Assembly: GCA_900208305.1 (NCBI GenBank)
Contig: OAPG01000011.1
Span: 558,001 to 622,000 of the forward strand
Direction: 5' to 3'
Length of the DNA: 64,000 nucleotides
From: Melanopsichium pennsylvanicum
Lineage: Eukaryota; Basidiomycota; Ustilaginomycetes; Ustilaginales
Below the pieces are notes generated by a model. The model was not told the origin of the DNA. It made no database searches and saw nothing but the letters and a program-made list of their open reading frames with translations. The position numbers and the translations under genes were made by a program. Below, in pieces: positions 53,821 to 63,639 of the stretch (the stretch's first letter is position 1; each line of letters starts with the position of its first letter).

Positions 53821-55191
53821 ATGGCCGACTCTGCACTACATGACAGACTTGACCGCCTCATCGCCCTCCTTGAGCAGCAGCAGGTAGACAATGCCGCACT
53901 CAAGGCTCGGCTCAACCAACAGGAGACTCCATCCCCTGGTCGACGAGCCAGGGAGCATGATCTAAGCTCCCCGACCCGTCGAGCCTCGCAGCAGGCGGAT
54001 GAGTCCTACCTCGGTGGTCTCAAGACACCCACGCCTGCAACTAGACCACACCCTCGGTCCGTCACCTTCGACATTCTCGACCGACGAGCGTACACCGACC
54101 AAGAGAAGTACGCTACACCTACTGGACCTCGGTATGTCAAACCGGTGACCCCGGAGGCATGGACCGGCACTGGCAGTGAACAGGACACTCAGCCCCACGC
54201 TGCCCTCAAGACTCCATTCCCCAAGCTTGACACTCGCGACATCGATATCTTCATTCTCGAGGCCGACGCTTGGTTCAAGGCTAATGGTGTGTACGACCAT
54301 ACTTCGATGATCCTACACACGGCAGCTCAGCTCAAGGGCACCGCTTGAGAGTGGTGGAAGGGTAAGCTCCGCGTCGACCGGCATCGTCAAGGGATGCTCT
54401 TCCATGATTGGAGCCACTTCACCACTCGACTCAGGGAGCTGTACAATCAGCGCAGCGACAGGGTCGATGCCTACAACAAACTCCTAGCATTGAGGCTTAT
54501 TACCGACACACCAGGAGCAGCAACGCGACATGTCGAGCAATTCCGAGACCTGGCAGCTCAGTGCCACATGGAGGACCCTGAGTTCGTCATCGACCTCTTC
54601 CGAGGGAGCCTTACTCGCTCACTTCAGGAGAAGTTTGAGCGTAACCCACCTGAAGACCAGTGGGCCTGGTACCGGGAGGTCGAGGACATTGATCGCCAGC
54701 GTATGCGGCATCAGCAGAATGCTGTCCGTTTTGCCCCAACCCCAGCAATCAGGACTGCTCATACCAAACCGGGCATTCCCCAGAGAACTGGCTCTTGACC
54801 GTTGCCCCCTCATCTGGCACAGAAGCTGCCGGTACGGGAAGCACCACCGAGACCTCGCGACGACCGAAGGGTCGTCCCCGGCCCGACGACATTTAACAGC
54901 GACGCTTGTAGGGTCTGCGGCAAGACCGGGCATTGGCAGCGGAACTGTCCAGACGCCAAGCCAACGGTTTACCCGGCTAGACCATCAGGACCACAGATGC
55001 GAGCGCACGTGGTGTTGGAGTCGGAGAAACCACAGGACGGCTCACCAGAGGAAGGAGACGGAGCTGAAGACCATCGCGAAGACGATGGCGGTCTTGAAGA
55101 CCACTTTGACCCCAACCTCTTCGCCGACAATCACGACGCAGGCAAGCCCTACCCCGAGGACGAGGGAAACGACCTTGGAGCGATGCAATGA
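53821..55191 (+). pseudogene. gag of the outer element with two in-frame TGA codons
   Basis: Structural capsid/nucleocapsid polyprotein. A single frame of 457 codons runs from MADSALHD to a CCHC zinc knuckle (CRVCGKTGHWQRNC) and an acidic C terminus, interrupted by TGA at 54346-54348 and 54796-54798. The inner element has Arg at the matching places (AREWW; ANRVPPPHL), so both stops look like CGA to TGA changes. The capsid region is recognisable by PFPKLDTRDIDIFILEAD and RSLQEKFERNPP. The stop TGA overlaps the pol start in a TGATG arrangement inside a hairpin. Confidence 0.87.
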
Positions 55192-55210
55192 TGGCATGCA
55201 TCGCTCTAAG
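55174..55210 (+). promoter_or_regulatory. gag-pol junction hairpin with TGATG in its loop (outer element)
   Basis: Arms 55174-55187 and 55197-55210 form 14 continuous pairs with one G-U wobble. The nine-base loop ATGATGGCA contains the gag stop TGA (55189-55191) and pol start ATG (55191-55193; another ATG overlaps at 55188). The equivalent site in the inner element folds the same way with different stem bases. Confidence 0.7.
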
Positions 55211-55680
55211 ACCGCCTTCGCCATCACCTTGTATATGTCAAGATTGTTCATTATGTTTCTCTGCAGCTTCCGGTGCCTCAGTACTCGAGCTAGCAGGTAC
55301 GGTCAACCACCATCCTGCTAGCATTCTCGCCGACACCGGCGCTGCATTGTCTATAGTTTCAGCTCCGTTTGTTCGCAAGTACTCGATAACCACAAAACCC
55401 ATAAAAAACAGAACCGTACACGGAGTGACCGGACATTCCCTCACGATCACGAGCGCTGCTGACGTCGACGTAGTCATAGGAGGACAACACCTAGGGATGC
55501 TCAAGGTCGCCGTCGCTGACGCTAGCGACTACAATTTCATCCTGGGGTACGATGAACTACGACGCCTACAGCCAAGGGTCCATTGGGATACTGGACAGCT
55601 CGATTTCGGAAAACCCAACGAGATCCGGTCAGACGCGGTTGTTCAAGGGATTTCACCGAAATCCGCCGAGACCGGCCGAT
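55191..55680 (+). pseudogene. pol of the outer element, protease part (5' of the insertion)
   Basis: Starts MACIALRPP, homologous to the inner MACLALQPP, overlapping the gag stop by one base. It encodes a retropepsin-like domain with the catalytic ILADTGAALSIV motif and later FILGYDELRRL. The reading frame is cut at 55680 by the inner element, inserted with duplication of CCGAT, and continues in frame from 63640. It is therefore disrupted at DNA level. Confidence 0.85.
55676..55680. repeat. Target-site duplication, left copy (CCGAT)
   Basis: CCGAT immediately before the inner 5' LTR, repeated exactly at 63635-63639 after the 3' LTR. A 5-bp duplication is typical of Ty3/gypsy integrase. Confidence 0.92.
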
Positions 55681-55843
55681 TGTTACCGGAGGTGGATTTC
55701 AAACCCGGTGAAACACTGTGTTCTATCGGGTTTCAGGTTGACATCCGCTAGAACACGTGGTTTCACCCGATATCAGTGCAACGCCCTCTGACAGCCTCCG
55801 TCTGGTACAGGAGGCCTGATGGAAGGGTGCAACATGATGTAGG

Positions 55844-56126
55844 ACCGTCCGCTGTGTGTGTCATGGTTGCTGACAGCCAGCACTGGTTAGCACGGGGCCC
55901 AAGCTACCGTCCGCTGTGTGTGTCATGGTTGCTGACAGCCAGCACTGGTTAGCACGGGGCCCAAGCTCAAGGGCGACATGGTTGCTGGCAGCTGGTATTG
56001 TTTAACACGGGGCCCAAGCTCGTGGTTGTCATAGTTGAGGGCAGTCGGCATTGTTTAACACAGGGCCCAAGCTCGTGGTTGTCATAGTTGATGACAGTCG
56101 GCATTGACTAGCACGGGGCCCAAGCT
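55844..56126 (+). repeat. Tandem array of 62- and 53-bp units ending in GGGCCCAAGCT (5' LTR)
   Basis: Two identical 62-bp units (55844-55905, 55906-55967) are followed by three related 53-bp units (55968-56020, 56021-56073, 56074-56126). Each ends ACGGGGCCCAAGCT or ACAGGGCCCAAGCT. The array lies upstream of the TATA box, where enhancer repeats occur in many LTRs. The 3' LTR has only one 62-bp unit. Confidence 0.93.
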
Positions 56127-56214
56127 CGCGGACACGTCGAAACTCTGGTGGCCATTGATACTCTGGTGTACCAGGGTCATAGCGGACAAAGGGGAGCCCC
56201 TGGAGGGCCATAGG

Positions 56215-56267
56215 TATATAAGAACACAGTCTTTACAGTCGTGGAGGAGCGGGACTCATCCACTCTA
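56215..56267 (+). promoter_or_regulatory. LTR core promoter, hairpin and putative self-primer (inner element)
   Basis: TATATAAG at 56215-56222, then a hairpin GGAGGAG/CTCATCC with one mismatch starting 28 nt downstream (56243), then ATCCACTCTA at 56258-56267, which is exactly complementary to TAGAGTGGAT at 56785-56794. TATA-to-primer spacing is 43 nt, identical to the outer element. Confidence 0.72.
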
Positions 56268-56783
56268 CTTTATATTAACCCAGTCTTTACTTTACAAGTC
56301 GTTATCAGTTACTCAGTATATAGTTCTCGTCAGCAGCTGCAATCATACGGTATTGCAGCTATCCAGTGTCTGTGTTCTCCTCAGTATAAGGAGACAAGCT
56401 TCATCGACGATTGTCAGCACCATCACTGACACTACAGCACCTCAACTGTAGGCGGAACCTCAACCGCGGTCACGGAACCTCCACCGTAGCCAATTCATTA
56501 TCACGACAGCTTCAAGACCATCCGAAGCAGTCCCTGACGGTGACCAACACTTGCATCAAGAGCACTCGTGCATCGTGAAGGTCTTACAACACACAGACGA
56601 GCCGCATTACCTCTGAACGGAGTGTTCACAGTGGTCAGTCAGCTCAAGAGTCGCGCAGCAGGTCTCATAGCGAAACACGATAGAACCGGCCTGCTTATCA
56701 GGTCTCAATCTCAAACACGCTAAAACAGACGGTTTCAGCGGATCTCGGTGCGAAGCTTGAGTTTGGCACAACGCCCCCTGACA

Positions 56784-56798
56784 TTAGAGTGGATCGTT
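56784..56798 (+). promoter_or_regulatory. Putative primer-binding site of the inner element
   Basis: TTAGAGTGGATCGTTC follows the LTR end. The bases 56785-56794 pair perfectly with 56258-56267 of the LTR. This is one of the few non-coding stretches strictly conserved between the two elements. Confidence 0.68.
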
Positions 56799-56819
56799 CA
56801 AGTAGTGCCCCTCGCCAAT

Positions 56820-58298
56820 ATGACAGACGAATCCCAACCCCGGACTCCGGAGCAGACGGGACGACCCCTGTTCCAGACGCTCTATGACACCACGGGTCAA
56901 TTACTGACAAAGATGAAAGACTTCAAGAATCACATCGAGGAAGTTGAAGCCCGACAGAAGAGGACGGACCAGAGCATCGACAGACTCCAGTCGTTGGTGG
57001 AACATGTGCTCGTCCGCCTGGAGGTATCAGACCGCCCAGAGCCGGAGACACCGACGCCTACGGCCCGAAACCGGCCAGACGACGACAAGGGCAACAGAGC
57101 TCGCTTGTACGAGCTCTACTCTACCCCAACCGGGGCTAGACAACAGGTCGCGCCCACGGAACTCCCCCCGGCCTTAGGATTGGCCACCAAAGCAGTGGTA
57201 AGTAGGCCGCCTGGAGAGTCAGCCCCGCAGTCGAAAGACAACGAGGAGGCCAAGTGGCCAACGGAACTCAAGACCCCGTTCCCGAAGATGGACCTCAAGG
57301 ATATGGACATGTTCTTCATCGAGGCTGAGTGGTGGTTTAGAATGAAGGGTATCCGGGACCATGGTAAGATGGTCGCTTACACCAGTCAGTTCCTCGAGGG
57401 CAGTGCTCGAGAATGGTGGAAGTCTAAGCTAAGGGCCGACCGCCAACAGCAAGGCATCCTCTTCAACGACTGGAATATGTTCACACAGAGACTCAAGGAA
57501 CAATATGGACAGCGAGACCTGAGGCTTGAGGCCATCACGGAGCTTCAGAAGCTGCGTATGCAGGACGACCGTCCCGGCACGGCCACCAGGTACCTTGAAC
57601 GGTTTAGGGACCTTGAAGGCCGAGCCAACATTGGCGACCAGGAGCTCGCAAAGTACTACTTCCGCTCGGGACTCTCTCGCAGCCTGCAGGAGAAGTTCGA
57701 GCGAAGCCCACCCCCATTGCTTTGGGAGTGGTACGCCGAGGTTGAAGCCATCGACCGGCAGCGGGTGGTAAACCAGCAAGCCCAACGATGGCACTCGATT
57801 CCACCAACGGAGTCGTCCAGGCCGGCGTACATGCCATCTGGCCCACCGATGGCCGTTAACAGACCCGTTGGAGGACTCCAGGCCACGCCCAAGCCAGTCC
57901 AGCAAGCTCCAAGGGCCAGCTATACCCCTCAGGGTATACCAATTGCCAATCGGGTGCCGCCTCCCCACCTGGCTCCACGCACCCCTGCTCGAGCTGGACC
58001 CACAACCGTGGGGAGTGACACTTGCTACATCTGCAAGAAGCCAGGCCACTGGGCCAACAACTGTCCTCAAAAGACAACTCATGCGGTCGTCAGGCCATCA
58101 GGACCCCGTGTGGGAGCGAACGTTGTCATCGCAGATGAGGAAGGCAGGGAGGATATACAGCAGGAACCTGAGGAGGCCAATTACGAGGGCGAGCCCCAGC
58201 TGGACCTAGAAGCCGCAGTCTATGACGACGAAGGCACGAGTAACCCCAAAGGAGAGCCTGACGACAGGCAGGGAAACAAGCGTGGGGCAGCACACTGA
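56820..58298 (+). CDS. gag polyprotein of the inner element
   Basis: Capsid and nucleocapsid precursor of 492 residues, intact. The start MTDESQPRTPEQ is the first ATG after the PBS in this frame. A coiled-coil-like stretch (LLTKMKDFKNHIEEVEA) is followed by the retrotransposon gag core (PFPKMDLKDMDMFFIEAEWWF; AREWWKSKLRAD; SLQEKFERSPP) and a CCHC knuckle CYICKKPGHWANNC near residue 401. The C terminus is acidic. The stop TGA (58296-58298) overlaps the pol ATG by one base. The outer element's gag aligns throughout. Confidence 0.93.
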   Translation: MTDESQPRTPEQTGRPLFQTLYDTTGQLLTKMKDFKNHIEEVEARQKRTDQSIDRLQSLVEHVLVRLEVSDRPEPETPTPTARNRPDDDKGNRARLYELYSTPTGARQQVAPTELPPALGLATKAVVSRPPGESAPQSKDNEEAKWPTELKTPFPKMDLKDMDMFFIEAEWWFRMKGIRDHGKMVAYTSQFLEGSAREWWKSKLRADRQQQGILFNDWNMFTQRLKEQYGQRDLRLEAITELQKLRMQDDRPGTATRYLERFRDLEGRANIGDQELAKYYFRSGLSRSLQEKFERSPPPLLWEWYAEVEAIDRQRVVNQQAQRWHSIPPTESSRPAYMPSGPPMAVNRPVGGLQATPKPVQQAPRASYTPQGIPIANRVPPPHLAPRTPARAGPTTVGSDTCYICKKPGHWANNCPQKTTHAVVRPSGPRVGANVVIADEEGREDIQQEPEEANYEGEPQLDLEAAVYDDEGTSNPKGEPDDRQGNKRGAAH

Positions 58299-58316
58299 TG
58301 GCGTGTCTTGCCCTAC
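58282..58316 (+). promoter_or_regulatory. gag-pol junction hairpin with TGATG in its loop (inner element)
   Basis: Arms 58282-58295 and 58303-58316 give 14 stem positions with two G-U pairs and one C-C mismatch. The seven-base loop TGATGGC holds the gag stop and pol start. Stem sequence is different from the outer element at nearly every position while pairing is kept. Confidence 0.7.
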
Positions 58317-61300
58317 AACCACCTATGCCATCGCAATGCATTGCTCAAGACTGCCAATTCTGTTTCACAGCCACATCGGGTTCCTCGGTACTCGAACTCA
58401 AGGGCACCGTTGAGGGCCATGGAGCTCGCATACTCGCGGATACCGGTGCTGGCTTGTCTATACTTTCACAAGCATTTGTTTCGGACCACAAGATAACCAC
58501 AAAACCTACAAAAACAAGATCGATTCACGGCGTAACGGGTCACAAGATGTACATAGACCATACCGCCGTTGTACAGGTAAGTATCGACCACTATTCACTG
58601 GGACAGGTGGAAGTAGCGGTCGCCAAGGCGGCGGATTATGACCTTATCATAGGCTATGATCAGTTGCGTAAGCTCCGACCCTCAATCAATTGGGAGGAAG
58701 GTCGAGTGGAGTTTGGGATGACAACAAACGCCGAACCCTGCGAATTTACTCCACAAACCGGGGCCCCACACAAAACCCGATTAAACAACGCGTTTTATCG
58801 GATTTCAAACGAGACCCGACAGGACGGGTCAGTTCAGCGGATTTCAACCAAAACCCGCCAGAACAGGGTGCCGGTTCTGGACTTCAAACTCCACGGTCAC
58901 GAGTTTGTATCGGCCAAGCAGCTTCTAAGGGCTGCCGTTGAAGATGGACCCATTGGGTTCATGCTTCTCGACGTTCCGGCAACGTCGTTGCCAGCCTTTG
59001 GGTTTGTCCCTACCGGGGCAGACAAAGGGGTTGACATGGAAGTTGAGAAGGACAAGCCCCCGGAGCAGGTACCGGAGCCTTACCAGGACCTTGCCGAGGT
59101 CTTTAACGAGGTCGAAGCAGACAAGCTACCCCACCGGACCGAACACGACCTCAAGATAGAGCTCAAATCGGGAGCAAAACCTCCTCAAGGCCCGCTCTAT
59201 CTGAAGGGTCCTAAGGAGATGGAGGAACTACGCAAGTACCTTGACGAGAACCTCGCAAAGGGATTCATTTGACCGTCGAAGAGCCCTGCACGCTCGCCAG
59301 TCCTGTTTGTGCCCAAGAAGGACGGGAGCCTACGTCTCTGCGTCGATTACCGTGGTCTCAATGAGATCACAATTAAGAATAGAGCGCCGCTGCCCCTCAT
59401 TGAGGAGCAACTATTCTTACTCCGTAATGCAAAGGTATATACTAAGCTGGACCTTAAGGCTGCATATAACCTGGTTCGCATCGCAGACGGCGATGAATGG
59501 AAAACAGCTTTTGGTACTCAGCTCGGATTGTACGAGTACTTGGTGATGCCGTTCGGGTTGGCCAACGCACCATCGCATTTCCAGTCTCTGATCAACAGTA
59601 TCTATAGAGACATCATTGGCGTGTTTGTTGTCGTATATCTGGATGACTTCCTCATCTTCAGCAACAATGAGGAGGAGCACATCGATCACGTCCGGGAGGT
59701 CTTGGAGAGGCTTCGAGCCAACCGGCTCTTTGCCAAGCTCTCAAAATGCACTTTCCATACAGATCAGGTCGAGTTCCTGGGGTACATCATTAAGCCAGGA
59801 GGGATTGAAATGGACCCCGAGAAGGTACAAACCATTCAGGAGTGGCCGATGCCAGCCTCTATACACGATATCCAGCGATTCCTAGGGTTTGCCAACTTCT
59901 ATAGGAGGTTCATTGCTCATTTTGCACAAATTGCAAGGCCTCTCACCTCGTTGGTCAAGCCGACGGAGAGGTTCAAGAAGTTTGAGCTGCCAGAGGATGC
60001 CCAACACGCTTTCCACAAGCTCATTGAGGCCTTCACAACGGCCGGAGTACTCAAGCATTTCGATTACCATCTGCCGACTCGCCTAGAGACTGACGCTAGC
60101 GATTTTGCCATAGCAGGAGTCTTGAAGCAGGAGCACAAGAAACGTTGGCACCCTGTGGCCTATTACTCAAGAAAGATGCAACCAGCCGAAAGGAACTATG
60201 AGATCCATGATAAGGAACTCCTCGCCGTCGTGGCGTGCCTGCAGCAATGGCGACATATGCTGGCAGGATTGCCAAGTCAGCTGGTCATCTACACGGATCA
60301 TGAAGCCCTCAAATACTTCAAGTCACAGAGGCGTATAAACGGGCGACAAGCTCGCTGGGCGGTAGTGCTCGCCGACTACGACTTCGTGCTCCATTACAGG
60401 CCTGGCAACAAAGGCGGAGAGCCTGATGCACTCACTCGGCGATCGGACATGCAACCGGCAGGAATGGAGAAAGAGCACAACATGCAGCAGTTGCTGCCGG
60501 CAAGCGTGTTTGAATCGCCGGAAGGAAATCCAAATCAGCATGAAAGCGTGGTAGCTTACCCGATTTTGACGCGAAATTGGATAAAACATGGTACAACCAC
60601 CGGATCTCAACTTGAGACCCGGTTAAGGACGACGATACCAACCATGGAGGAGATAGCCACGGGAGGCTTGATGAGTCTCATCCGGACATTCCAACCACTG
60701 GACGAGCAGCTTAAGGAGATACACCAACACACCCCGTTTGAAATTAAGGATGGGTTATGGTATAAGAATGGGCGCATCGTGGTACCAAGAGTCACCCTCG
60801 GCGGCCGTAAGGGCAAAGCAAGGCCACAGGTAGCCAAACAATCGCTATCTGTGGAACATTTAAGGTACATGGTAATGACACAGTGCCACGATGGGATCAA
60901 TGCGGGCCACGTTGGGCGAGACGCTACCTTAGACCTTGCCCGCAGACACTACTGGTGGCCAGGCATGGCCGCTTGGGTGGCAGACTATGTGGCAAGCTGC
61001 CCTGTGTGTGCGAGATACAAGACGCCGCGCCACAAACCATATGGCTTGTTGCAGCCGCTATCGACACCAGAGAGACCTTGGGGGTCAATATCCCTCGATT
61101 TCATCGAAGGCTTGCCGAGCTCAAGTGGTTTTGATTCCATACTGGTTGTGGTTGACCGGCTTTCAAAACTTGCAGTCGTAATGCCAACGCATAAGACAGC
61201 AACGTCGAAGGACACGGTCGAGCTACTGCAGGCACATGTATTTAAGAGGTTTGGGGTGCCTGAACATATCGTATCGGACCGAGGACGACAATTCATCTCT

Positions 61301-62137
61301 GCGATCTGGAAGGATTTTGCTCAACAGCACAACATCAAACACTCTTTGAGCACCGCATATCATCCTCAGACAGACGGTCAAACGGAACGGGTGAATCAAG
61401 TTGTCGAGCAGTACTTGCGTATCTATTGCAACTACGAGCAAGATAACTGGGCAAGCTTGTTGCCAATGGCGGAGTTTGTGTATAACAACACCGTCCATAG
61501 CAGCATTGGGGTGTCCCCGTTCTTTGCATGCTATGGGTGGAACCCTAAAATGCACCCAGAGCTACCAGAACAAGTGGGAATACTGGACCCCAAGCGCCAA
61601 GAATTTGCCAAAACCAACAAAGAGCTAGTACGATACCTTCAAGAACAAGCCAGGCAAGCACAGTCGCGGGCAGTCGAACAATACAACCGGAAACGAAAGG
61701 ACATAGAGTTCAAGGTCGGTGACAGGGTTTACGTCAGTACCAAGAACTGGGCCACTCGGCGACCTACAGCGAAGCTCAACACTAGGTTTGCTGGACCATT
61801 CCCGGTGATTGAGCGAATTGGCCGCAGGGCGTACCGAATTCAATTACCAAGTTCAGTCAGGGTTCACAACGTCTTCCATGTCTCAATGCTCGAGCGTACA
61901 AAGGATAGCAAACTAGAAGGACGCTCAACGATACAACCATATCCGACATTGCATGATGAGGACTTGGAATTCGAAGTGGAAGCCATTGTTGACATACGTT
62001 GGCGACAAGGCCAGGTGGAAAACTTGGTCCAGTGGAAAGGGTATCCCGAGGAAGCAGCTTCATGGGAACCAGCAGAGGCGGTCAACGCCCCCCAACTCAT
62101 CCAGGAGTATGAGCGATTGGAGGGGGGGACGGCGTAG
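58298..62137 (+). pseudogene. pol polyprotein of the inner element (one in-frame TGA)
   Basis: A 1,279-residue frame with domains in Ty3/gypsy order. Protease: ILADTGAGLSIL with Asp48. Reverse transcriptase: VLFVPKKDGSLRLCVDYRG-type entry, FGLANAPSHF, and the catalytic YLDD at 59636-59647. RNase H: ETDASDF and IHDKELLAVV. Integrase: zinc-binding H-H-C-C region around 60,870-61,020 (CPVC), then the catalytic Asp-Asp-Glu set (SLDFIEG, VSDRGRQF, TDGQTERVNQ), and a GPF-type module (TRFAGPFPVIERIG). Chromodomain: VDIRWRQGQVENLVQWKGY and SWEPAEAV near the end. A TGA at 59270-59272 lies where relatives have Arg in the GFIRPS motif at the start of RT; apart from it the frame is open. Without readthrough, RT and integrase would not be made by this copy. 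Confidence 0.92.
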
Positions 62138-62580
62138 AAGTACCATAAAACTGCCCCGGATTGCCTTGGGACAAAGCATCGCGAAAGCTAGGTTTGAATC
62201 TCAGACCCGGTAAAACGCGCTGTTTTATCCGAATTCAGTTGAAATCCGATAAAACAACCCTCTGCAGCCGATCTCAGTTGAAACCCACTTAAAGTGGTAA
62301 TTCTATCGGATCTCATACACCGGGGCTGAAAGTGGAAGGCGACGGTTGGCGACGTCACAGGCTTTTCAACACAAACATGGTAAGAAGGAACAAGACATTG
62401 CAATTACAACATGATACAGGCGAGTCTGTTGCATTAAGATTGCACAGGAGGATCGTGGTGATATAGGAATAGATGATGAAGACCATTGCAAAAGAAGAGT
62501 TGTACACCGAGGATAAGGGCTGGTAGGAGCTAAGTTCTCTGCGCCGCCGGACTTCATTACCTCGCAGGAGCTCGGTTCTT
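62138..62580 (+). other. 3' non-coding region of the inner element
   Basis: About 440 nt between the pol stop and the polypurine tract. The first 170 nt hold ATCCG/CGGAT-type hairpins (arms 62207-62216 with 62222-62231) similar to those in the LTR and in linker coding regions. No open frame of note. Confidence 0.7.
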
Positions 62581-62593
62581 GGAAGGGGGGTAG
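62581..62593 (+). promoter_or_regulatory. Polypurine tract
   Basis: GGAAGGGGGGTAG directly precedes the 3' LTR and is the expected primer site for plus-strand DNA synthesis. Confidence 0.88.
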
Positions 62594-63634
62594 TGTTACC
62601 GGAGGTGGATTTCAAACCCGGTGAAACACTGTGTTCTATCGGGTTTCAGGTTGACATCCGCTAGAACACGTGGTTTCACCCAATATCAGTGCAACGCCCT
62701 CTGACAGCCTCCGTCTGGTACAGGAGGCCTGATGGAAGGGTGCAACATGATGTAGGACCGTCCGCTGTGTGTGTCATGGTTGCTGACAGCCAGCACTGGT
62801 TAGCACGGGGCCCAAGCTCAAGGGCGACATGGTTGCTGGCAGCTGGTATTGTTTAACACGGGGCCCAAGCTCGTGGTTGTCATAGTTGAGGGCAGTCGGC
62901 ATTGTTTAACACAGGGCCCAAGCTCGTGGTTGTCATAGTTGATGACAGTCGGCATTGACTAGCACGGGGCCCAAGCTCGCGGACACGTCGAAACTCTGGT
63001 GGCCATTGATACTCTGGTGTACCAGGGTCATAGCGGACAAAGGGGAGCCCCTGGAGGGCCATAGGTATATAAGAACACAGTCTTTACAGTCGTGGAGGAG
63101 CGGGACTCATCCACTCTACTTTATATTAACCCAGTCTTTACTTTACAAGTCGTTATCAGTTACTCAGTATATAGTTCTCGTCAGCAGCTGCAATCATACG
63201 GTATTGCAGCTATCCAGTGTCTGTGTTCTCCTCAGTATAAGGAGACAAGCTTCATCGACGATTGTCAGCACCATCACTGACACTACAGCACCTCAACTGT
63301 AGGCGGAACCTCAACCGCGGTCACGGAACCTCCACCGTAGCCAATTCATTATCACGACAGCTTCAAGACCATCCGAAGCAGTCCCTGACGGTGACCAACA
63401 CTTGCATCAAGAGCACTCGTGCATCGTGAAGGTCTTACAACACACAGACGAGCCGCATTACCTCTGAACGGAGTGTTCACAGTGGTCAGTCAGCTCAAGA
63501 GTCGCGCAGCAGGTCTCATAGCGAAACACGATAGAACCGGCCTGCTTATCAGGTCTCAATCTCAAACACGCTAAAACAGACGGTTTCAGCGGATCTCGGT
63601 GCGAAGCTTGAGTTTGGCACAACGCCCCCTGACA
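62594..63634 (+). repeat. 3' LTR of the inner element (1041 bp)
   Basis: Same TG...CA ends as the 5' LTR. It has one 62-bp unit instead of two (array at 62757-62977) and A instead of G at 62682. The remainder read the same by eye. Confidence 0.96.
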
Positions 63635-63639
63635 CCGAT
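63635..63639. repeat. Target-site duplication, right copy (CCGAT)
   Basis: Matches 55676-55680. After removal of the inner element and one copy, the outer pol frame is continuous. Confidence 0.92.

What the first reader, a model, noticed from the sequence alone, without database searches (positions are those of the whole stretch)
55174..58316. Stop-restart TGATG at the gag-pol junction is held in the loop of a covarying 14-position hairpin in both elements
Seen directly: in the outer element arms 55174-55187/55197-55210 pair over 14 bp (one G-U) around a 9-nt loop; in the inner element arms 58282-58295/58303-58316 pair over 14 positions (two G-U, one mismatch) around a 7-nt loop. Both loops contain TGATGGC, with gag TGA overlapping pol ATG by one base. 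The stem bases differ at most positions, yet pairing survives, which is compensatory covariation. Known Ty3/gypsy elements mostly use a frameshift or a single frame; coupled termination-reinitiation at TAATG/TGATG is known for some LINEs and viruses. A hairpin that exposes the stop/start in its loop, acting as a gag:pol ratio switch, appears undescribed to me. The function is inference.
Basis: partly seen in the sequence, partly recalled or inferred. Interest (0 to 1): 0.82.

Follow-up and report, generated by a model that had tools for sequence, protein, structure and literature searches.

The report
Frameshift signal in smut retrotransposons
The hairpin at the gag-pol junction of two nested fungal retrotransposons is real, but it sits directly behind a classic slippery sequence, so it most likely makes some ribosomes slip back one base to produce a Gag-Pol fusion, a known kind of signal, rather than restarting translation at an exposed stop/start.

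Summary
It is the only in-phase X_XXY_YYZ site in gag (1 in 457 and 1 in 493 codons). Pol is in the -1 frame, open from the heptamer. This is the textbook layout of -1 programmed frameshifting, which makes Gag-Pol. The heptamer is kept in 37 of 37 outer-family and 30 of 30 inner-family copies; one relic of a sister family has lost it. A third Ty3 family (RT 61-62% identical) has the heptamer in 19 of 20 copies and a 12-bp hairpin, but its gag stop precedes the stem and its loop holds no ATG. In 16 of 18 of its copies the first pol ATG lies past the protease DTG. Of 63 gag homologues, 19 end in (E/Q/M)GN plus exactly six residues. The loop TGATGGC can pair with GCCATC(A/G) downstream (pseudoknot); this is not statistically secure. 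Covariation exists (4 double changes) but is weaker than claimed. Termination-reinitiation is unsupported as the main route, not excluded as a minor one. New member of a known kind.

The parts
55164..55170 (+). Outer element: slippery heptamer G GGA AAC in gag frame
   Evidence: Only in-phase X_XXY_YYZ in 457 gag codons; kept in 37 of 37 copies
55174..55187 (+). Outer element: 5' arm of stem S1
   Evidence: 14 of 14 pairs, one G-U; strongest 37-nt fold of 1892 windows
55189..55195 (+). Outer element: loop TGATGGC, gag stop TGA (55189-55191) overlapping pol ATG (55191-55193); candidate S2 5' strand
   Evidence: Kept in 37 of 37 copies
55197..55210 (+). Outer element: 3' arm of stem S1 (pol codons after MA)
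55220..55226 (+). Outer element: GCCATCA, candidate S2 3' strand (pseudoknot; tentative)
   Evidence: Exact complement of the loop, 37 of 37 copies; not secure statistically
58271..58277 (+). Inner element: slippery heptamer G GGA AAC in gag frame
   Evidence: Only in-phase X_XXY_YYZ in 493 gag codons; kept in 30 of 30 copies
58282..58295 (+). Inner element: 5' arm of stem S1
   Evidence: 13 of 14 pairs; 3 of 5282 windows fold as well
58296..58302 (+). Inner element: loop TGATGGC, gag stop TGA (58296-58298) overlapping pol ATG (58298-58300); candidate S2 5' strand
   Evidence: Kept in 29 of 30 copies; L035 lacks one base
58303..58316 (+). Inner element: 3' arm of stem S1
58327..58333 (+). Inner element: GCCATCG, candidate S2 3' strand (pseudoknot; tentative)
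   Evidence: 29 of 30 copies; GCCATTG in the other, still pairing by G-U
53821..55191 (+). Outer element gag frame, broken in this copy by in-frame stops at 54346 and 54796
55191..55680 (+). Outer element start of pol (aspartyl protease), cut by insertion of the inner element
   Evidence: Pfam gag-asp_proteas; outer element resumes at 63635
55681..63634 (+). Inner Ty3/gypsy chromovirus, nested in the outer pol, with CCGAT on both sides
56820..58298 (+). Inner element gag (Retrotrans_gag, zinc knuckle)
   Evidence: Pfam
58298..62137 (+). Inner element pol (protease, RT, RNase H, integrase, chromodomain), in -1 frame of gag; this copy has an in-frame TGA at 59270

Best explanation
Both elements carry a -1 programmed ribosomal frameshift signal. 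Most ribosomes read gag through G GGA AAC and six more codons and stop at the TGA, giving Gag. The strong stem that begins 3-4 nt after the heptamer resists unwinding while the ribosome is on the slippery site. A minority slip back one base (G GGA AAC to GGG AAA) and continue in the -1 frame, reading the overlapping ATG as an ordinary Met codon, to make a Gag-Pol fusion. The stem may be part of an H-type pseudoknot in which the loop TGATGGC pairs with GCCATC(A/G) 9-10 nt beyond the stem; that would explain why the loop is nearly invariant, and the TGATG overlap would then be largely incidental. Shown by sequence: heptamer, phase, frames, stem, conservation. Inferred: that slippage occurs, its rate, and the pseudoknot (about even odds).
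For: GGGAAAC is the only in-phase X_XXY_YYZ in each gag (1 of 457 and 1 of 493 codons), 3-4 nt before the strongest local fold of each junction. Kept in 37 of 37 A and 30 of 30 B copies. Pol open in -1 for 40 codons from the heptamer in 37 of 37 A and 29 of 30 B; gag stop at the same codon in 67 of 67. Family D, RT 61-62% identical: same heptamer in 19 of 20 loci, 5-nt spacer, 12-bp stem, stop before the stem; first pol Met after the protease DTG in 16 of 18 loci. 19 of 63 gag homologues end (E/Q/M)GN plus exactly six residues, in 14 distinct tails. G_GGA_AAC is named among the shiftiest -1 sites (PMC5009743 passage).
Against: No translation data. The spacer (3-5 nt) is shorter than the 6-9 nt called typical in PMC3835772, though that paper's table has rows with 4 or fewer and it argues that bottom pairs can open. 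Relic C has GGGGAAC, and one D copy has GGGAGAC. Nucleotide data cover only A, B, one relic C and D; homologues elsewhere were seen as protein only. Seven S2 pairs with G-U arise in 14% (A) and 29% (B) of codon-resampled sequences, and D has no good S2. The shuffle control for the number of double-changed pairs was reached in 191 of 500.
Confidence: 0.88

Rival explanations
1. One reading: the hairpin presents a TGATG stop-restart in its loop and pol is made as a separate protein by coupled termination-reinitiation.
For: Stop and start overlap in all 68 A, B and C junctions. Overlapping stop-start sites are used by victoriviruses, hypoviruses and the LINE SART1 (PMC5972666 passages and reference entry).
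Against: Leaves the unique in-phase heptamer and the open -1 frame upstream of the ATG unexplained. Family D keeps heptamer and hairpin without any stop/start in the loop. No UGGGA (motif 1 core) within 100 nt upstream in either element, though victoriviruses and hypoviruses lack it too.
Confidence: 0.04
2. Frameshifting stimulated by a simple hairpin; the downstream match to the loop is chance plus conserved protein sequence. A variant of the best explanation, not in conflict with it.
For: S2 is not significant under codon resampling (14% and 29%); its variable pairs change on one side only; D has no good S2.
Against: Exact 7-nt complement in 37 of 37 A copies, expected in 0.34% of random 25-nt stretches; pairing survives in B and C by G-U.
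Confidence: 0.45
3. The pairing is a by-product of coding: both arms encode conserved Gag and Pol ends that happen to be complementary, with no RNA function.
For: With proteins fixed, random codons already pair 11.3 of 14 (A) and 9.5 of 14 (B) on average; facing wobble positions make coincident synonymous changes likely.
Against: Observed pairing exceeds that null in A, B, C and D (212, 37, 17 and 214 of 20000), and the stem follows the only slippery site in A, B and D.
Confidence: 0.04

Closest known systems
Retroviral -1 frameshift signals with GGGAAAC and a pseudoknot (SRV-1, MPMV, visna, CAEV, FIV rows of PMC3835772 Table 1)
   Same: Same heptamer, pol or pro in -1 frame, strong downstream structure. 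By my reading of the table columns (header not seen) CAEV has spacer 4, S1 10, S2 7, L1 1, L2 15 and JDV, with another heptamer, S1 12, S2 6, L1 1, L2 8.
   Different: Here S1 is 13-14 bp, the spacer 3-4 nt, the pseudoknot is unproven, and the gag stop and an in-frame pol ATG lie in the loop.
PEG10 and PNMA genes, derived from Ty3/gypsy elements
   Same: Ty3/gypsy origin, -1 frameshifting with an H-type pseudoknot (PMC5009743 passages).
   Different: Mammalian domesticated genes; no kinship beyond the superfamily was tested.
Fungal gypsy elements with pol in the -1 frame (Verticillium VdLTRE2/3/4, Paracoccidioides RtPc1)
   Same: Two frames, pol -1 to gag (passages of PMC3441728 and PMC4427930).
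   Different: The passages seen name no heptamer or stimulator; the sequences were not compared here.
Coupled termination-reinitiation (caliciviruses, victoriviruses, hypoviruses, LINE SART1)
   Same: Overlapping stop and start; RNA elements near the junction (PMC5972666 passages; SART1 from its reference entry).
   Different: No slippery heptamer is part of that mechanism as described in those passages; its determinants lie upstream of the stop in the cases read.

Membership tests
-1 programmed ribosomal frameshift signal | X_XXY_YYZ heptamer in the upstream frame at the end of the first ORF | tested here: met
   G GGA AAC, only in-phase site in each gag; 37 of 37 A, 30 of 30 B, 19 of 20 D, 0 of 1 relic C
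-1 programmed ribosomal frameshift signal | Second ORF in the -1 frame, open from the heptamer | tested here: met
   40 codons open in 37 of 37 A and 29 of 30 B
-1 programmed ribosomal frameshift signal | Stable stem or pseudoknot a few nt downstream | tested here: met
   Stem after 3-5 nt, strongest or near-strongest local fold; spacer shorter than the typical 6-9 nt
-1 programmed ribosomal frameshift signal | Gag-Pol fusion actually made | not testable with these tools
   No expression or peptide data held
H-type frameshift pseudoknot | Loop of S1 pairs with a downstream strand | tested here: inconclusive
   7 of 7 pairs possible in A and B, but 14% and 29% under codon resampling
Coupled termination-reinitiation | Stop and start codons overlap or nearly touch | tested here: met
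   TGATG in 68 of 68 A, B and C junctions
Coupled termination-reinitiation | Upstream determinant such as UGGGA motif 1 pairing to 18S rRNA | tested here: inconclusive
   No TGGGA in 100 nt upstream of either stop; not all known cases have it
Coupled termination-reinitiation | Second protein made separately, starting at the overlapping ATG | not testable with these tools
   No expression data held
Ty3/gypsy chromovirus | PR-RT-RNase H-IN order with chromodomain, between LTRs | tested here: met
   Pfam hits in the inner element; direct terminal repeats

The most novel reading that the evidence does not exclude
A dual-output signal: the same RNA structure drives -1 slippage to Gag-Pol and, because its loop strand is itself a TGATG stop-restart, lets some ribosomes that did not slip terminate inside the opened structure and reinitiate to make free Pol. 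One element would set the ratio of three products.
Probability: 0.08. Interest if true: 0.6.

Novelty: new member of a known kind. Interest (0 to 1): 0.3.

Why it matters
It turns an apparent exception (stop-restart in an LTR element) into the ordinary retroviral mechanism. It shows one heptamer-plus-hairpin layout in two separate Ty3 lineages of one smut genome, a compact test case for -1 frameshifting in fungi. It also offers a reason why automated gene models of smut retrotransposons break here: 11 homologous models seen run from (E/K)GN straight into pol sequence.

Tried and rejected
Rejected as main mechanism: coupled termination-reinitiation (heptamer and open -1 frame unexplained; family D). 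Rejected: chance hairpin. Stop-codon readthrough was not pursued, because pol is in the -1 frame and not the gag frame.

Led nowhere: a viral-contig scan for relatives (2 stretches matched a pattern, none was a relative). Of eight stretches near other RT hits, two (L112, L114) gave family D junctions; in the other six I recognised no A/B-type junction. DNA of other smut species could not be reached, so no multi-species covariation test was possible. For the count of structure pairs I gave 7 of the 68 A/B/C junctions held, chosen as variants; L035, which lacks a loop base, and the B copy with GCCATTG were not among them. Of the 38 places, one (47 nt, not reaching the junction) was left out of the A count; of the 32, one was an A copy and one is relic C. 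The D counts use the 20 loci that matched, and 18 of those 20 for the Met/DTG test (L112 and L114 are too short). One search used a wrong gag frame for codon usage and is superseded; one search crashed in its last test, redone.

Literature: ten searches answered. I saw no title or abstract in those listings that describes this junction in smut elements; the library lacks most subscription journals. Gao et al. 2003 is not held and was seen only through the review PMC5009743.
Full report
WHAT WAS CLAIMED AND WHAT IS THERE. The stems, loops and TGA/ATG overlap are at the coordinates given. The window lies in a genome of 21.1 Mb in 61 contigs. A homologue annotated MEPE_06845 of Melanopsichium pennsylvanicum sits on a contig of 312,315 bp, the length of contig C23 here, so that smut is the probable source; this is inference. 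The inner element (55681-63634) is inserted in the outer element's pol between two copies of CCGAT and has the domains of a Ty3/gypsy chromovirus. Both window copies are broken: outer gag has stops at 54346 and 54796, inner pol a TGA at 59270.

COPIES. The genome holds 37 junctions of the outer family (A), 30 of the inner family (B) and one relic, C, 81% identical to B over 160 nt. One search lists stop-to-stop pol frames of 1280 aa in 14 A copies and 1291 aa in 9 B copies, so the pol frame is long and open in many copies.

THE MISSED FEATURE. GGGAAAC lies at 55164-55170 and 58271-58277, in gag phase G GGA AAC. It is the only in-phase X_XXY_YYZ site (YYY AAA or TTT, Z not G) in 457 gag codons of A (scanned through this copy's stops) and 493 of B. 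The stem follows after 3 nt (outer) or 4 nt (inner). The heptamer is present in 37 of 37 A and 30 of 30 B junctions; relic C reads GGGGAAC. Pol is in the -1 frame and open for 40 codons from the heptamer in 37 of 37 A and 29 of 30 B copies (L038 has a stop further on). Gag ends at the same TGA in 67 of 67.

IS THE HAIRPIN REAL? Sliding 37-nt windows: the junction is the most stable of 1892 in A. In B, 3 of 5282 windows fold as well as the junction window tested; the best non-overlapping one starts at 58282 and ties with 58995. In D the best starts at the junction stem, with 4 of 3441 windows at least as stable as the one tested. Isolated hairpins: A -22.6 kcal/mol, z -5.98; B -18.0, z -3.29. 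At 66 nt, A z -6.34 and B z -0.98. At 201 nt, A z -3.53 and B z -0.43, so B stands out only locally. With proteins fixed and codons drawn from the inner element's usage, as many pairs arise in 212 (A), 37 (B), 17 (C) and 214 (D) of 20000 draws, and MFE as low in 21, 55, 104 and 6 of 4000.

COVARIATION. In a gap-free alignment of 7 rows (4 A, 2 B, 1 C), S1 has 14 columns of pairs: 6 never vary, 2 vary on one side, 4 have changes on both sides, 2 depart only by unpaired cells; 91.8% of cells pair. Slid structures pair 27-48% of cells. Shuffles reached the covariation score in 0 of 500, but the number of double-changed pairs in 191 of 500 and the number of pair types in 486 of 500. Relic C differs from B in the stem by one double change only. 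Three of the four double-changed columns set third codon positions of gag and pol opposite each other (read), and two facing transitions always restore pairing, so this is weaker evidence than it looks. Among single copies, three A copies keep pairing through G-U, one A copy (L104) breaks one pair, and one B copy (L035) lacks one loop base.

A MORE DISTANT FAMILY. Family D has an RT 62% and 61% identical to A and B, which are 88% identical to each other. It has G GGA AAC, TAA, a 5-nt spacer (TAAGG) and a 12-bp stem with a 9-nt loop. The heptamer is intact in 19 of 20 loci and is the only in-phase one in the 200 gag codons held of L047. The loop holds no stop/start. In 16 of 18 loci the first in-frame Met of pol comes after the protease DTG, so restarting there would lose the catalytic motif.

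HOMOLOGUES. A gag search returned 63 proteins; those with names are from Ustilago. 19 of 63 end in (E/Q/M)GN and exactly six residues, in 14 distinct tails. A and B gag end likewise, GN plus six residues before the stop. The other 44 of 63 end elsewhere. Eleven gene models shown run from (E/K)GN into pol sequence, which looks like annotation bridging the frameshift. Three pol homologues that reach the junction begin MAC(I/M)AL, one of them with MMAC like the outer element.

PSEUDOKNOT. TGATGGC can pair with GCCATCA (55220-55226) or GCCATCG (58327-58333), 9 and 10 nt after the stem; C and one B copy keep pairing by G-U. Duplex energies are -9.8, -9.7 and -7.4 kcal/mol for A, B and C. Dimensions resemble CAEV and JDV rows of PMC3835772 (column order is my reading). 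Against: 7 pairs with G-U occur in 4.6% of random 25-nt stretches and in 14% (A) and 29% (B) of codon-resampled sequences; the exact complement occurs in 0.34%. D shows only weak options. I hold this at about even odds.

MECHANISM AND LITERATURE. Best reading: -1 frameshifting with a hairpin or pseudoknot stimulator, giving Gag and Gag-Pol. PMC5009743 (passages) lists G_GGA_AAC among the shiftiest sites, and says many animal LTR elements have pol in -1 with such sites while in fungi +1 and -1 were less skewed. Fungal gypsy elements with pol in -1 are in print (passages of PMC3441728 and PMC4427930). A search inside PMC9603552, on smut LTR elements, found 'frameshift', 'gag' and 'reinitiation' zero times; one inside PMC2864245, on fungal chromoviruses, found 'frameshift' zero times. 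Termination-reinitiation does not explain the heptamer or D, but could add a minor free Pol, since TGATG is kept in 68 of 68 A, B and C junctions.

VERDICT. Real feature, misread mechanism: a new member of a known kind. The stop/start inside the structure is a modest twist that deserves one reporter experiment.

Noticed in passing
55676-55680 and 63635-63639: CCGAT on both sides of the inner element: a 5-bp target repeat showing it is nested in the outer element's pol.
   Followed up: yes
55681-56205 and 62594-63056: The inner element's terminal repeats are identical in the matched blocks but out of register by 62 nt, as if a 62-nt unit is present twice in the 5' repeat and once in the 3' one.
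   Followed up: no
L047 and other family D loci: Third Ty3 family with GGGAAAC TAA and a 12-bp hairpin: a second frameshift signal in the same genome.
   Followed up: yes
P0014, P0015, P0024, P0056, P0058, P0067, P0070, P0107, P0143, P0149, P0157: Ustilago gene models that run from (E/K)GN straight into pol sequence at this junction; probably annotation artefacts over the frameshift site.
   Followed up: partly
L106 (G000:C23:293700-295200): Single relic of a sister family of the inner element: stem kept with one double change, heptamer altered to GGGGAAC.
   Followed up: partly
55087-55095 and 55208-55216: GGCGGTCTT upstream in gag is an exact reverse complement of AAGACCGCC at the foot of the outer stem (read); a possible competing fold.
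   Followed up: no
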